DNA of 64,000 nt, taken from positions 330,749 through 394,748 of the forward strand of contig CACYZF010000006.1 of assembly GCA_902778895.1 (NCBI GenBank), in the 5' to 3' direction. Shown here in pieces: positions 16,744 to 21,081 of this stretch. How positions within the stretch are numbered: position 1 is the first letter of the stretch; every line of letters starts with the position of its first letter. A program made the position numbers and the translations under genes. The DNA comes from an uncultured bacterium (lineage in GTDB: Bacteria > Verrucomicrobiota > Lentisphaeria > Victivallales > UBA1829). The notes below the pieces were generated by a model. That model saw nothing but the letters and a program-made list of their open reading frames with translations, did not search any database and was not told where the DNA came from.

Positions 16744-17418
16744 ATGAAAAAATCATCTTCCTCGAATCCGCAAAAGAACAGTCCTCTGTACAATCTGGTG
16801 TTCATTATTGTCCTGCTTTTCACGGCACTGCCGTTCATCCTTTTCGCTCTTCTTCAGTTCGCGCCTCCGTCCTTCGGTTCCTCGAAGAAGACGGTTGCGG
16901 CTGTTGACAACTCATCGAAACGTTTGACGTCGGAAGAACGTCGCGCCCAGCGCGAAGAAGCCCGCAGGGCAACTGAAGCGGCGGCTGTCGCGCAGAGAAC
17001 CAATGCGGCCGGCCCGGTCATGACGACCACGACGGTTACGGGTATGGACTTCGGTCCCGGCATGGGGCCCGGCGGCTTCGGCGGCCCCGGCGGTTTCGGC
17101 GGCCCCGGTATGGACTTCGGCGGCGGCATGGGCGGCTTCGGCGGCCCCGGTATGGACTTCGGCGGCATGGGCGGCTTCGGCGGCCCCGGCGGCATGGGCG
17201 GCTTCGGCGGCGGTATGGACTTCGGCGGCGGCATGGGCGGCTTCGGCGGCCCCGGCGGCATGGGCGGCTTCGGCGGCGGTATGGACTTCGGCGGCGGCAT
17301 GGGCGGCTTCGGTGGCGGTGGCATGGGCGGCTTCGGTGGCGGCGGCATGGGCGGCTTCGGTGGCGGCGGTATGGGCGGCTTCGGTGGCGGCGGCTTCGGT
17401 GGTTTCGGCGGCTTCTGA
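16744..17418 (+). CDS. Anchored glycine-rich repeat protein (GGFGG/GMDFGG)
   Basis: 224 residues. A short polar N-terminus, one membrane helix (about 18-40), a charged Arg/Glu/Ala segment (about 58-90, possibly coiled coil) and then 125 residues of almost pure Gly with Phe, Met, Pro and Asp in GGFGGPGG, GMDFGGGMGGFGG and GGGGMGGFGG repeats. The tail is outside the cytoplasm if the N-terminus stays in (positive-inside rule is only weakly met). Gly-Phe repeats are known for flexible, self-associating or adhesive chains, so a structural envelope role is inferred; no enzyme domain is present. GGAG lies six bases before the ATG and a strong terminator follows. Not assigned to a named family. Confidence 0.8.
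   Translation: MKKSSSSNPQKNSPLYNLVFIIVLLFTALPFILFALLQFAPPSFGSSKKTVAAVDNSSKRLTSEERRAQREEARRATEAAAVAQRTNAAGPVMTTTTVTGMDFGPGMGPGGFGGPGGFGGPGMDFGGGMGGFGGPGMDFGGMGGFGGPGGMGGFGGGMDFGGGMGGFGGPGGMGGFGGGMDFGGGMGGFGGGGMGGFGGGGMGGFGGGGMGGFGGGGFGGFGGF
17041..17418 (+). repeat. Coding tandem repeats of the glycine-rich protein
   Basis: Imperfect tandem units built on GGCGGCTTCGGCGG and GGTATGGACTTCGGCGG. A unit of about 70 bp (roughly 17150-17300) is present almost identically twice, and the last 90 bp are GGC/GGT-rich 18-bp units. Copy number could vary by slippage. Confidence 0.8.
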
Positions 17419-18235: not shown

Positions 18236-18607
18236 ATGGACAAATACTACTCGAAAACCCACGAATGGGTCAAAACGGACGGCGAAGAAGCCATCGTCGG
18301 CATCTCCGAATACGCCGCGGCCGACCTCGGCGACATCACGTTCGTCGATCTCCCCCGTGAAGGTACGGACCTGATCTGCGGCGACAGCATCGGCACCATC
18401 GAATCCGTGTCCGCATCCTCCGACGTCTATTCCCCCGTGAGCGGGACCGTTACCGCGGTCAACCACGCGCTCGACGATGATCCCGGCATCATCAGTTCCA
18501 GCGCCGAGGGAAAAGGCTGGCTCTACAAGCTCGACAATATCGATCCGACCGAGGTCGACGAGCTCATGTCGGAAGAAGAGTACGCCGAGTACCTGGAAAC
18601 CCTGTGA
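18236..18607 (+). CDS. GcvH-like protein lacking the lipoyl-lysine
   Basis: 123 residues, the usual length and full fold of glycine-cleavage H protein: KTHEWVK start, VGISEYAAADLGDITFVDLP, SPVSGTVTAVNHAL, DDDPGIISSS, GWLYKL and a C-terminal EEEYAEYLETL. The lipoate hairpin, normally ESVKAxSDxYxP, reads ESVSASSDVYSP; the lysine position is Ser59 (TCC at 18410-18412) and no other Lys lies in the hairpin. It therefore cannot carry lipoyl-methylamine in the normal way. No gcvT, gcvP, lipA, lipB or lplA is in the window. AGAGGAA precedes the start, and a LOG-family gene follows after eight bases. Possible roles include a binding partner or decoy H protein (inference). The gene symbol is withheld because function is doubtful. 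Confidence 0.88.
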   Translation: MDKYYSKTHEWVKTDGEEAIVGISEYAAADLGDITFVDLPREGTDLICGDSIGTIESVSASSDVYSPVSGTVTAVNHALDDDPGIISSSAEGKGWLYKLDNIDPTEVDELMSEEEYAEYLETL

Positions 18608-18615
18608 GGTGACGC

Positions 18616-19323
18616 ATGGCCGATCTTGAACCCACCAACCTCGCCGGTTTTTCCGACCTGGTCGACCTGAACGCCGAAGAGCCGTGGCGCATCTTCCGCA
18701 TCATGTCGGAATTCATCGACTCATTCGAGAACATGGCCAAGCACAAACGCCTCGTTTCCGTTTTCGGTTCCGCCCGTACCAAAACAGACGATCCCGTCTA
18801 TCAGGACTGCGTCCGCTTCGGCGAACTCCTCACTGACGCCGGCTACGGCATCCTCACAGGCGGTGGTCCCGGCATCATGGAGGCCGCCAACCGCGGCGCC
18901 TGGAAAAAGAACGGCGAGTCCGTCGGTCTGAACATCAAGCTCCCGATGGAGCAGCATCCGAATCCGTATCAGTCCGATTCCCTCGATTTCCGCTATTTCT
19001 TCGTGCGCAAGGTCTGCTTCCTCAAGTATTCCGTCGCGATCGCCATCTATCCCGGAGGTTTCGGCACGCTCGACGAATTCTCCGAAGCGCTTACCCTCAT
19101 CCAGACCAGAAAAGTCCGCACCGTCCCGCTCGTGGCGGTCGGAAAGGAATACTGGCAGCCGCTCTTCGACTGGTTCCGCGATACCATGCTTCGCGACCGC
19201 ATGATCAACGAAGACGATCTGAATCTCTTCTATGTCGCGGAAAACGCTGACGATGCGTTCCGTTATATCAAATGTGTTCACGACAGGTGCGGCGTGAAGT
19301 CGACGGTCCGAAAAGACATCTGA
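18616..19323 (+). CDS. LOG-family Rossmann-fold protein (TIGR00730-like)
   Basis: 235 residues with the LOG signatures GGGPGIMEAANRGA (about 76-89) and PGGFGTLDEF (about 145-154), the nucleotide-binding and catalytic motifs of cytokinin-riboside-monophosphate phosphoribohydrolases, often misnamed lysine decarboxylases. The likely activity is cleavage of nucleoside 5'-monophosphates to base and ribose 5-phosphate. An N-terminal extension of about 45 residues precedes the core, as in the larger LOG subgroup. GAGG precedes its ATG, eight bases after the GcvH-like stop, so the two are cotranscribed. A strong terminator follows. The physiological substrate is unknown. Confidence 0.9.
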   Translation: MADLEPTNLAGFSDLVDLNAEEPWRIFRIMSEFIDSFENMAKHKRLVSVFGSARTKTDDPVYQDCVRFGELLTDAGYGILTGGGPGIMEAANRGAWKKNGESVGLNIKLPMEQHPNPYQSDSLDFRYFFVRKVCFLKYSVAIAIYPGGFGTLDEFSEALTLIQTRKVRTVPLVAVGKEYWQPLFDWFRDTMLRDRMINEDDLNLFYVAENADDAFRYIKCVHDRCGVKSTVRKDI

Positions 19324-19348: not shown

Positions 19349-19384
19349 GTGCGGTCCGCCAACAAGGCCGGCCGCACTTTTTTA
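19349..19384 (+). terminator. Rho-independent terminator after the LOG gene
   Basis: Long GC stem, arms 19349-19360 and 19366-19377 with internal mismatches, followed by six T residues (19378-19383). Confidence 0.82.
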
Positions 19385-19435: not shown

Positions 19436-19442
19436 AACTGCG

Positions 19443-19540
19443 TACCACGGGGTGCTGGATCGCGCGTCATCCGATGCGCGGCCCGGCTGAGATCATACCC
19501 GCATAACCTGATCCGGATAATGCCGGCGTAGGAAATCGAC
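19443..19540 (+). ncRNA. TPP riboswitch (THI element)
   Basis: Contains the conserved aptamer blocks in order: ACGGGGTGC (19447-19455), GGCTGAGATCATACCC (19485-19500), ACCTGATCCGGATAATGCC (from 19506) and GGCGTAGGAAA (to 19535). This is the classic thiamin-pyrophosphate sensor. It lies between a good promoter and thi4, so thiazole synthesis should fall when TPP is plentiful. Confidence 0.95.
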
Positions 19541-19544
19541 AGCG

Positions 19545-19608
19545 CAATCCTTTCCGTTGGGAAGCCGCATGCGTTTTCTGCGAAACCATCAACCAAACGA
19601 AAGGATTG
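19545..19608 (+). promoter_or_regulatory. Riboswitch expression platform sequestering the thi4 ribosome site
   Basis: CAATCCTTTC (19545-19554) is an exact 10-nt complement of GAAAGGATTG (19599-19608), which contains the thi4 Shine-Dalgarno sequence AAAGGA. GGAAA at the aptamer 3' end (19531-19535) can instead pair with TTTCC (19551-19555). Control is therefore probably at translation initiation: with TPP bound the GGAAA stays in the aptamer and the anti-SD helix forms. The switching direction is inference. Confidence 0.7.
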
Positions 19609-19614
19609 ACGAAC

Positions 19615-20415
19615 ATGTCAGACTCCTCCTCCCAGGTCATCGAAACGACCATCTCCCGCGCCATCGTCGAAAACTTCTCGGCGAAACTCCTCGACAGCCT
19701 CACTGTCGACGTCGCCATCGTCGGTGCGGGGCCGTCCGCACTCGTCGCGGCACACTATCTCGCGAAAGCCGGCATCAGCGTGGCAATCTTCGAACGCAAG
19801 CTCGCGCCCGGCGGCGGCACATGGGGAGGAGGCATGCTCTTCAACGAAGTCGTCGTGCAGGATGCCTCGCTGGAGATTCTCGACGAATTCGGCATCAAGC
19901 ACAAGCCCATCCCCAGCGCTCCCGGTTATAACACCCTTGATTCCGTCGAAATGGCCAGCGGCCTCATCTTCGGCGCGGTCAGCGCAGGCGCGAAGATATT
20001 CAACGCCGTCAGCGTCGAGGACATCGTGTTCCGCGGCGAACAGGTCGGCGGCCTTGTCATCAACTGGACGCCTGTCGAACGCCTTGGCATGCACGTTGAC
20101 CCGCTGACCGTGATCTCGCAGTGCGTACTGGATGGCACGGGACATCCGAGCGAGATCATGCACCTCGCGGTCGAAAAGGCCCAGTTGAAGCTTGCCACCA
20201 GCACAGGCGGTATCCTCGGCGAAAAGCCAATGTGGGTCGACAGCGGCGAAGCCTCCACCGTCGAGAACACCCGCGAATACTTCCCCGGTCTCTTCGCCTG
20301 CGGCATGAGCGCGAACAACGTCATGGGCGGCTACCGCATGGGCCCGATCTTCGGCGGCATGATGCTTTCCGGACGCAAGGCCGCGGACCTGATCCGTAAA
20401 CGCCTCGGGAAATGA
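19615..20415 (+). CDS. thi4: Sulfide-dependent thiazole synthase Thi4 (His-type)
   Basis: 266 residues of the THI4 family. It makes the ADP-thiazole precursor of thiamin from NAD, glycine and sulfur. The NAD-binding GAGPSA (37-42), the [15 protein letters not shown] segment (60-74) and a C-terminal [20 protein letters not shown] are present. The suicidal yeast and plant enzymes have a sulfur-donating Cys at the active site; here that place is His160 ([12 protein letters not shown]), as in methanogen Thi4, so the enzyme should be catalytic and use free sulfide with iron. That fits an anaerobic, sulfide-rich habitat. The ATG at 19615 is chosen over an in-frame TTG at 19606 because AAAGGA ends nine bases before it. 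Under TPP riboswitch control and cotranscribed with thiE. Confidence 0.94.
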
Positions 20416-20418
20416 CCG

Positions 20419-21081
20419 ATGCCGCGCCGCGTCTATACCACGCATGAGGATCGTCTTGAGGCATTCAGACGGACAGATGTCTATCCCGTCATTACGTCCG
20501 AATTCTGCGCCGGACGCCCGCCCTCCGAAATCGCCGCATCCCTTTTGGCGGGTGGCGCACGTATCCTGCAAATTCGCGAAAAGAGCATGCCTGACCGTCC
20601 GTTCCTGGAGCTCCTGCGACAAGTCCGCGAACTTGCTTGGGAGTGCGGCGCGCTGCTGGTCGTGGACGATCGCGTGGACGCCGCACTGATCGCACAGGCG
20701 GACGGCGTGCATCTGGGACAGGAGGACCTTCCTCTCTTGGAAGCCCGCCGTATCGCACCTGAACTGCTGATCGGCGTTTCCACGCACAATGCCGACGAGA
20801 TTCGCCGGTCGCAGGACGAGGGCTGCTCCTACCTCAATATCGGCCCGATCTTCCCGACGAATACAAAAAAGCTCACGGGAATCCGGTTTCTCGGTCTGGA
20901 CGGACTCAAATCTCTGATTCCGCTCGTCCGTGTGCCGTTCTCCGTGATGGGCGGCATTAAGTATGCGCACCTCGCGGAACTCAAGGCCGCCGGAGCAGGG
21001 CGGATCGCCGCCGTGACCGCTTTCACGCAGGCCCCGGACCCCGGCGCGGAAGTCGCAAAATGGCGCGCCGCGCTGAACTGA
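20419..21081 (+). CDS. thiE: Thiamin-phosphate synthase
   Basis: 220 residues. It joins hydroxymethylpyrimidine diphosphate and thiazole phosphate to thiamin phosphate. The TIM-barrel landmarks are ILQIREK (about 51-57), VVDDRVDAALIAQADGVHLGQEDLP (split over 74-98), IGVSTHNADEI and YLNIGPIFPTNTKK, the last binding pyrophosphate. Its N-terminus carries about 20 extra residues ahead of the VYPVIT strand. It follows thi4 by three bases, so the riboswitch covers both. An efficient terminator ends the unit. No thiC, thiD or thiG is nearby, so the pyrimidine half must come from elsewhere or from uptake. Confidence 0.94.
   Translation: MPRRVYTTHEDRLEAFRRTDVYPVITSEFCAGRPPSEIAASLLAGGARILQIREKSMPDRPFLELLRQVRELAWECGALLVVDDRVDAALIAQADGVHLGQEDLPLLEARRIAPELLIGVSTHNADEIRRSQDEGCSYLNIGPIFPTNTKKLTGIRFLGLDGLKSLIPLVRVPFSVMGGIKYAHLAELKAAGAGRIAAVTAFTQAPDPGAEVAKWRAALN

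What the first reader, a model, noticed from the sequence alone, without database searches (positions are those of the whole stretch)
18236..18607. Full-length GcvH fold without the lipoyl lysine
Every landmark of H protein is kept, yet the invariant lysine of the lipoate hairpin is Ser59 (TCC), with no substitute Lys nearby. It is cotranscribed with a LOG-family nucleotide enzyme rather than glycine-cleavage genes. It may be a re-purposed H protein: a decoy for lipoyl ligases, a regulator, or a partner of the LOG enzyme.
Basis: partly seen in the sequence, partly recalled or inferred. Interest (0 to 1): 0.72.

Follow-up and report, generated by a model that had tools for sequence, protein, structure and literature searches.

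The report
Lipoyl-free glycine-cleavage H protein
A bacterium carries an intact copy of a glycine-breakdown protein that has lost the one amino acid holding its essential cofactor; the same loss recurs in many relatives that lack the breakdown pathway, yet the protein is still preserved by selection, so it likely has a second, cofactor-free job, probably with the nucleotide enzyme encoded right beside it.

Summary
ORF 18236-18607 is a full H protein (above the TIGR00527 cut-off; model pLDDT 95.7, close to solved H proteins) with Ser59 (TCC) at the lipoyl lysine, 8 nt before a type-II-like LOG gene. It is neither error nor relic: 11 of 13 genomes of the genus have Ser (codons TCC/TCA/TCG, dN/dS 0.04), as do 120 of 120 listed homologues. 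The genome also has a Lys-bearing GcvH between gcvT and gcvPA. On the tree the Ser copy is the family's own H protein (order Victivallales); the operon copy groups elsewhere, so likely came by transfer. In the sampled class, H proteins of GcvP-bearing genomes keep Lys in 65 of 65 rows, orphan ones in 18 of 68; the rest bear S, D, R, N, T, E, G, Q, C, H or V, cultured Victivallis vadensis Asn. GcvP-less genomes keep GcvH (20 of 24) but seldom GcvT (4 of 24). What varies is the lipoyl hairpin and a nearby strand; most of the core holds. LOG follows GcvH in 18 of 18 genomes of four related genera. Best reading: an H protein kept for a lipoyl-independent role, likely as a protein partner, here of LOG. 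That role is untested.

The parts
18236..18607 (+). GcvH-family protein without the lipoyl lysine (123 aa)
   Evidence: TIGR00527 135.1 bits, cut-off 115.85; pLDDT 95.7; Foldseek: solved H proteins
18410..18412 (+). codon 59, TCC = Ser, at the lipoyl-lysine position
   Evidence: TCC/TCA/TCG among 11 genomes
18401..18424 (+). former lipoyl hairpin, residues 56-63 (ESVSASSD)
   Evidence: mean entropy 0.044 against 0.179 over all columns in 120 homologues
18606..18611 (+). GAGGTG, a likely ribosome-binding site of LOG overlapping the GcvH stop codon (inferred by eye)
   Evidence: sequence
18616..19323 (+). LOG-family protein, likely a nucleotide 5'-monophosphate phosphoribohydrolase, type-II-like (235 aa)
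   Evidence: PF03641; TIGR00730 124.6 bits, cut-off 96.35; 5zi9, 5wq3 as best solved matches; GGGPGIMEA and PGGFGTLDE present (motif recalled)
19349..19383 (+). terminator-like hairpin and T-run closing the two-gene unit
   Evidence: -20.8 kcal/mol, z -4.5, 0 of 200 shuffles as low; not listed by the pattern scan

Best explanation
This gene encodes a glycine-cleavage-type H protein that has lost its lipoyl lysine yet stays intact and under purifying selection, and it likely works as a lipoyl-free protein-binding module, probably as a non-catalytic partner of the LOG nucleotide enzyme encoded 8 nt downstream. Shown by the calls: Lys to Ser; purifying selection; a separate normal GcvH in the gcvT-H-PA operon; the GcvH-LOG pair kept in 18 of 18 genomes of four genera; repeated loss of the Lys in GcvH of GcvP-less genomes of the order. 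Predicted: the intact H-protein fold. Inferred: the glycine cleavage system was lost early in this family, the H protein was kept for a second role that does not need lipoate, the Lys was then free to change, and in this genus a whole gcv operon with its own H protein came back by transfer while the native copy fixed Ser. Untested: any binding between GcvH and LOG, and any effect on LOG activity.
For: H proteins of GcvP-bearing genomes keep Lys in 65 of 65 rows (47 by whole-genome search, 18 by a GcvPA gene beside them), orphan ones in 18 of 68; by genus 0 of 40 against 14 of 15 have a Lys-less member; at least 16 Lys/non-Lys changes on the tree. GcvP-less genomes keep GcvH in 20 of 24 but GcvT in 4 of 24, within the family 16 of 17 against 0 of 17; 9 of 11 genomes without GcvP, LipA and LplA/LipB still keep it. 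Of 45 positions near-invariant in 27 canonical rows of the same families, 27 hold in 50 Lys-less orphans, 6 lie between and 12 relax: D33 I34 T35 V37 E38 S57 V58 K59 A60 S62 D63 C97. dN/dS 0.041 for the Ser copy, 0.150 for the operon copy (55 pairs each). Ser59 in 120 of 120, hairpin more conserved than average. LOG is the next gene downstream in 18 of 18 genomes of g1, g5, g6, g9, while none of six other window neighbours was found in the fetched flanks of G006, g5, g6 or g9. The gcv-operon copies of the genus form their own branch (SH-aLRT 99) among other families of the class.
Against: The LOG link is gene order alone and, on the tree, has one origin; orphan GcvH outside that clade has other neighbours (folP, folE, an HPr-like gene; none shared by all), so LOG cannot explain why the order keeps GcvH. 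18 of 68 orphans still have Lys, including several in genomes without any detected ligase. The formal sister-pair test had only 1 usable pair (p = 1), because the short protein resolves few branches. Most genomes are drafts, so absences are uncertain. LipS1/S2 and E2 proteins were not searched.
Confidence: 0.5

Rival explanations
1. Folate or one-carbon helper: the Lys-less H protein would bind or regulate a folate or pterin enzyme, a remnant of its old partnership with the folate-using T protein, and LOG would be a later neighbour.
For: Next to orphan GcvH lie folP in g7 (12-14 nt downstream, 3 of 3 genomes by clustering, one member named), folE in g44 (136-194 nt upstream, in the 4 g44 genomes that have GcvH, one member named), a pteridine-reductase-like SDR in g8 (about 250 nt upstream, 2 of 2 genomes with GcvH, below the curated cut-offs) and a degenerate GcvT in g43 (2 of 3 genomes). 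V. vadensis (G052) keeps a GcvT without GcvP.
Against: Post hoc; a different folate gene in each case; no folate gene beside the window copy; most orphan genera lack such a neighbour; GcvT is gone from 20 of 24 GcvP-less genomes.
Confidence: 0.17
2. Ligase decoy or lipoate-economy device: in this genus, which seems to live by lipoate salvage (LplA, no LipA found), the Ser copy would dock to LplA without being lipoylated, or Ser was fixed so that a leftover H protein does not waste lipoate.
For: The genome has a full-length LplA (328 aa) and no LipA match; the residues that relax elsewhere are intact here and the hairpin is nearly invariant in close homologues; Ser was fixed in genomes that have LplA and GCS, whereas G006, without them, keeps Lys.
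Against: Orphan H proteins are kept in genomes without any detected ligase; G008 has LplA, GCS and a Lys copy; does not explain the LOG pair. The insulation version explains Ser but not why the protein is kept.
Confidence: 0.12
3. Relic: a redundant H protein drifting towards loss, held for a while by its place in front of LOG.
For: The Lys position varies widely between genera; 4 of 24 GcvP-less genomes have no GcvH; the G149 copy has an in-frame stop.
Against: dN/dS 0.03-0.07 in the Lys-less groups measured (only 1 to 8 usable pairs outside g1), as low as in canonical g3 (0.050); 27 of 45 near-invariant positions held across 14 genera; 61 of 123 columns invariant in 120 homologues; kept in f4 without LOG beside it.
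Confidence: 0.07
4. A working glycine-cleavage H protein that uses another residue or another acyl carrier.
For: Predicted fold intact; GCS genes are present in this genome.
Against: The operon has its own Lys-bearing GcvH; no Lys near residue 59; most orphans live without GcvP and GcvT.
Confidence: 0.03

Closest known systems
Canonical GcvH (TIGR00527, PF01597)
   Same: Length, predicted fold (TM by query 0.93-0.97 and rmsd 0.8-1.3 A for the best eleven matches), profile score above cut-off, 27 of 45 near-invariant positions held across the Lys-less set
   Different: No lipoyl lysine; not beside gcvT/gcvP; paired with LOG; orphan relatives live without a detected GCS
GcvH-L of the SirTM/macrodomain/LplA2 operon (PMC4518038, passages read)
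   Same: H-like protein with a GCS-independent role, in S. pyogenes the only H protein
   Different: GcvH-L is lipoylated on Lys56 by LplA2 and its ADP-ribosylation depends on that; the window protein has no such Lys; structural match weaker (5a35, TM 0.81-0.88, 20% identity)
LbpA of sulfur oxidation (PMC6067878, passages read)
   Same: GcvH-like protein outside glycine cleavage
   Different: 95 aligned LbpA share a strictly conserved Lys, and, some archaeal ones apart, two conserved Cys; the window protein has Ser there and one Cys
Chlamydial GcvH-like TIGR03077 'not_gcvH'
   Same: H protein kept without P and T proteins in a two-gene operon (recalled), in the same superphylum
   Different: Score 58.5 against cut-off 144.05; the recalled partner family is not LOG; its Lys status was not checked
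Type-II LOG, e.g. Cg1261 of Corynebacterium glutamicum (PMC5379747, abstract read)
   Same: The downstream enzyme: residues before the LOG domain, best solved-structure matches 5zi9 and 5wq3 at 222.1 and 218.5 bits (that these are C. glutamicum type-II LOG entries is recalled)
   Different: No H-protein partner in the abstract; of the 32 papers only 12 were listed, and none of those listings links GcvH and LOG

Membership tests
GcvH (glycine cleavage H protein) | Profile score above the curated cut-off | tested here: met
   135.1 against 115.85; 130.2 against 22.2
GcvH (glycine cleavage H protein) | H-protein fold | tested here: met
   (prediction from 52 sequences, pLDDT 95.7)
GcvH (glycine cleavage H protein) | Lipoyl-attachment lysine | tested here: not met
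   Ser59
GcvH (glycine cleavage H protein) | Serves GcvP and GcvT | not testable with these tools
   Not beside gcv genes; another GcvH sits in the operon; needs an assay
GcvH-L (SirTM system) | Lipoylated Lys | tested here: not met
   Ser59
GcvH-L (SirTM system) | Operon with LplA2, SirTM and macrodomain | tested here: not met
   direct neighbours are a 148-aa protein without Pfam match and LOG, then a TPP riboswitch; the genome's LplA lies on another contig; SirTM and macrodomain were not searched genome-wide
LbpA | Strictly conserved Lys and two Cys | tested here: not met
   Ser59 and one Cys, C48
LbpA | Linked shdr gene cluster | not tested
   hdr genes were not searched
TIGR03077 not_gcvH | Score above 144.05 bits | tested here: not met
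   58.5 bits
Type-II LOG (downstream gene) | LOG domain with N-terminal extension and catalytic motif | tested here: met
   Pfam match starts at residue 45 and the match to 5zi9 at residue 21; PGGFGTLDE in the sequence (motif recalled)
Type-II LOG (downstream gene) | Hexamer with phosphoribohydrolase activity | not testable with these tools
   needs protein

The most novel reading that the evidence does not exclude
The H-protein fold has a second, lipoyl-independent cellular function that is older than the loss of glycine cleavage in Victivallales; freed of the cofactor, the hairpin was re-shaped genus by genus for new partners (LOG in the clade of the window, folate-synthesis enzymes or an HPr-like protein elsewhere), and orphan H proteins of other PVC bacteria such as Chlamydiae may do the same thing.
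Probability: 0.35. Interest if true: 0.85.

Novelty: new variant of a known kind. Interest (0 to 1): 0.7.

Why it matters
The lipoyl lysine is treated as the reason H protein exists. Here it is lost again and again, in an order that includes a cultured species, while the rest of the protein is held by selection. GcvH-L and LbpA, the two H-like proteins outside glycine cleavage whose papers I read in part, both keep and use the lysine. This set gives clean material, from genomes without detected GcvP, GcvT or lipoylation enzymes, to ask what an H protein does without its arm, and a concrete first partner to test, the LOG nucleotide enzyme.

Tried and rejected
Sequencing error and pseudogene: rejected. 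Simple story 'the gcv copy is the original and the Ser copy a duplicate': rejected by the tree, in which the Ser copy sits with its family. LOG as the universal partner of orphan H proteins: rejected; in f4 no LOG was seen on the same strand within 1.5 kb of GcvH in the fetched loci. A first AlphaFold2 run with 25 near-identical sequences failed (pLDDT 45.6) and is not used. A sigma-70 promoter directly before GcvH: none passed the scan. Family-level searches only repeated the 36 genomes already seen. Literature: searches gave no Lys-less H-protein lineage and no GcvH-LOG pair in the listings that I saw (searches found no paper at all; some searches listed only part of their hits); two searches showed nothing on glycine cleavage in Victivallales in what they listed. 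The library lacks most subscription papers. The match list was cut off; GcvH loci outside f1 and f4 were only partly fetched.

Rows dropped or doubtful: of 145 GcvH rows, 5 divergent paralogues (L078, L080, L082, L084, L088; four of them Lys-less) were left out of the tree and counts, and 7 further rows, all with Lys and all outside the order, were left out of the association for lack of a GcvP status. G149 has an in-frame stop and was counted. G046's 20-bit GDC-P hit and G055's 22-bit partial GCV_H hit were taken as absence; G060's 59-bit GCV_T hit was taken as presence. The residue named for the shortened hairpin of G156/L238 depends on the alignment (E, D). The neighbour genes were called by a script of mine with loose starts.

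Full report
OBSERVATION. The ORF at 18236-18607 encodes a 123-aa H protein with Ser (TCC, 18410-18412) where the lipoyl lysine belongs (aligned with the Lys of the Thermotoga protein). It passes the TIGR00527 gcvH cut-off. A model from 52 sequences has pLDDT 95.7; its best matches are solved H proteins of human, bovine, Thermotoga, Thermus, mouse and E. coli, TM by query 0.93-0.97 and rmsd 0.8-1.3 A for the best eleven. The next gene, 8 nt on, is a LOG-family protein whose best solved matches are 5zi9 and 5wq3, named cytokinin riboside 5'-monophosphate phosphoribohydrolase. A terminator-like hairpin follows it, then a TPP riboswitch (19438-19552).

NOT AN ERROR OR RELIC. In the genus (13 genomes) 11 have Ser, by codons TCC, TCA or TCG; median dN/dS over 55 pairs is 0.041 at median dS 0.53. 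All 120 listed homologues (of 1044 hits) have Ser59, and the hairpin 56-63 is more conserved (mean entropy 0.044) than the protein as a whole (0.179). So in this genus the changed hairpin is itself constrained.

TWO H PROTEINS. The genome has a second GcvH with Lys between gcvT and gcvPA, GcvT and GcvP matches, a complete 328-aa LplA and no LipA match. On the tree (140 rows, 116 columns, hairpin columns left out) the Ser copies sit among the H proteins of their own family, while 12 operon copies of the genus form a separate branch (SH-aLRT 99) among other families of the class. The likely history is loss of the native system and later return of a complete operon by transfer; this is inferred.

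RECURRENT LOSS OF THE LYSINE. I collected 145 GcvH rows from the class; 140 entered the tree. Among the 133 rows with a known state, H proteins of GcvP-bearing genomes have Lys in 65 of 65 (47 by genome search, 18 by a GcvPA gene beside them); orphan H proteins (no GcvP found in the genome, or the LOG-linked copies of this genus) have it in 18 of 68, the other 50 bearing S 14, D 9, R 7, N 5, T 4, E 4, G 2, Q 2, C, H and V 1 each. By genus: 0 of 40 against 14 of 15 with at least one Lys-less member; four genera are in both sets. The tree needs at least 16 changes, 7 in the window's family and 9 in f4. The Fisher value (1e-21) ignores relatedness; the sister-pair test that respects it had one usable pair and says nothing. 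One of the 17 is Victivallis vadensis DSM 14823, whose GcvH DNA is identical to G052's: Asn, with no GcvP, no LplA/LipB domain and no LipA over the cut-off found in a genome rated 99% complete. Of its 120 best listed homologues 78 have K, 30 N, 7 S, 3 D, 2 Q.

THE PROTEIN OUTLIVES ITS PATHWAY. Of 24 GcvP-less genomes among 61 relatives, 20 keep GcvH and 4 keep GcvT; in the window's family 16 of 17 and 0 of 17. Of 11 without GcvP, LipA and LplA/LipB, 9 keep GcvH. Of 50 further f4 genomes searched, 30 show neither GcvPA nor LipA, and 27 of these keep GcvH. Most are drafts, and LipS1/S2, an alternative lipoyl synthase (PMC10332631, passages read), was not searched; the missing ligase is the stronger point.

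WHAT IS KEPT. Of 45 positions that are at least 95% conserved in 27 canonical rows of the same two families (16 genera), the 50 Lys-less orphans (14 genera) hold 27 at 85% or more, among them H9, W11, G22, G32, P40, G49, P67, G70, N76, P83, E91, W95, M111 and Y116; 6 lie between; 12 fall below 70%: D33, I34, T35, V37, E38, S57, V58, K59, A60, S62, D63 and C97. Eleven of the twelve are the hairpin and one other strand, which I recall as lying beside it on the lipoyl face; I did not measure distances. The pattern is what one expects if the arm and its docking are no longer used while the body still is. In the window's genus those residues are intact or nearly so, so there chiefly the Lys is gone.

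NEIGHBOURS. LOG is the next gene downstream of GcvH in 18 of 18 genomes of g1 (13), g5 (1), g6 (2) and g9 (2), which form one weakly supported clade (80). None of six other window neighbours was found in the fetched flanks (about 4 kb a side or less) of G006, g5, g6 and g9, so the pair outlasted rearrangement around it. Each genome of the genus has a single LOG match. Elsewhere orphan GcvH sits by folP (g7), folE and a nitroreductase (g44), a pteridine-reductase-like SDR (g8), a degenerate GcvT (g43) or an HPr-like gene (10 genomes of g30) (one member of each gene cluster was named by profile). No partner is shared by all.

MECHANISM. I commit to a lipoyl-free binding module: a small rigid barrel that once docked to several enzymes by turns (P, T, ligase) and now would serve as a partner subunit, here likely of the LOG enzyme, shaping its assembly or activity. 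Retention, selection and gene pairing are shown; binding and effect are inferred. The ligase-decoy idea is weakened by ligase-free genomes but stays possible inside this genus.

KNOWN OR NEW. GcvH-L and LbpA are H-like proteins outside glycine cleavage, but both keep and use the Lys (PMC4518038, PMC6067878, passages read). A role of H protein beyond glycine cleavage is argued for GCSH in embryos (PMC7868403, search listing only). I saw no report of a Lys-less H-protein lineage or of a GcvH-LOG pair in the listings. I file it as a new variant: a GcvH-family protein that fails the lipoyl-lysine test.

Noticed in passing
L080, L082, L084 (G042, G049, G054; family f8) and L088 (Victivallis vadensis, G052): A second, divergent GcvH-like paralogue with Gly at the lipoyl position; in f8 it occurs in genomes that also have a gcvT-H-PA operon with Lys.
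   Followed up: no
L078 (G016), around 1576-2650: A further GcvH-like protein with Lys, directly before an LplA-like gene that shows an in-frame TAG in the search; may be a SirTM-type GcvH-L/LplA2 pair (not tested).
   Followed up: no
L172, L173 (G130, G131; genus g43): A degenerate GcvT (56 bits to GCV_T for the G130 copy) just before an Asp-type GcvH in genomes without GcvPA: both old partners persist in altered form.
   Followed up: partly
L144 and L179-L187 (genus g30): GcvH is followed by a 94-aa HPr-like protein in 10 genomes, and in 9 a membrane protein of one cluster is also nearby; the Arg-type hairpin ETDRYSV is identical in six of them.
   Followed up: partly
window 19438-21081: TPP riboswitch ahead of a Thi4-like thiazole synthase (19606-20415) and a ThiE-like gene (20419-21081), just downstream of the GcvH-LOG unit; the gene names are read by eye, only the riboswitch was searched.
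   Followed up: partly
window 16744-17418: 224-aa protein whose second half is almost entirely a Gly-Met-Phe-rich repeat (GGFGGPGGMGGF...); a related gene occurs in the same place in another genome of the genus (L033).
   Followed up: no
loci L057, L058, L062, L066, L069, L073 (downstream of GcvH): A conserved protein of about 160-213 aa (the L062 copy has no Pfam match) follows GcvH in g3, g4 and g8, whether or not GcvT is present.
   Followed up: partly
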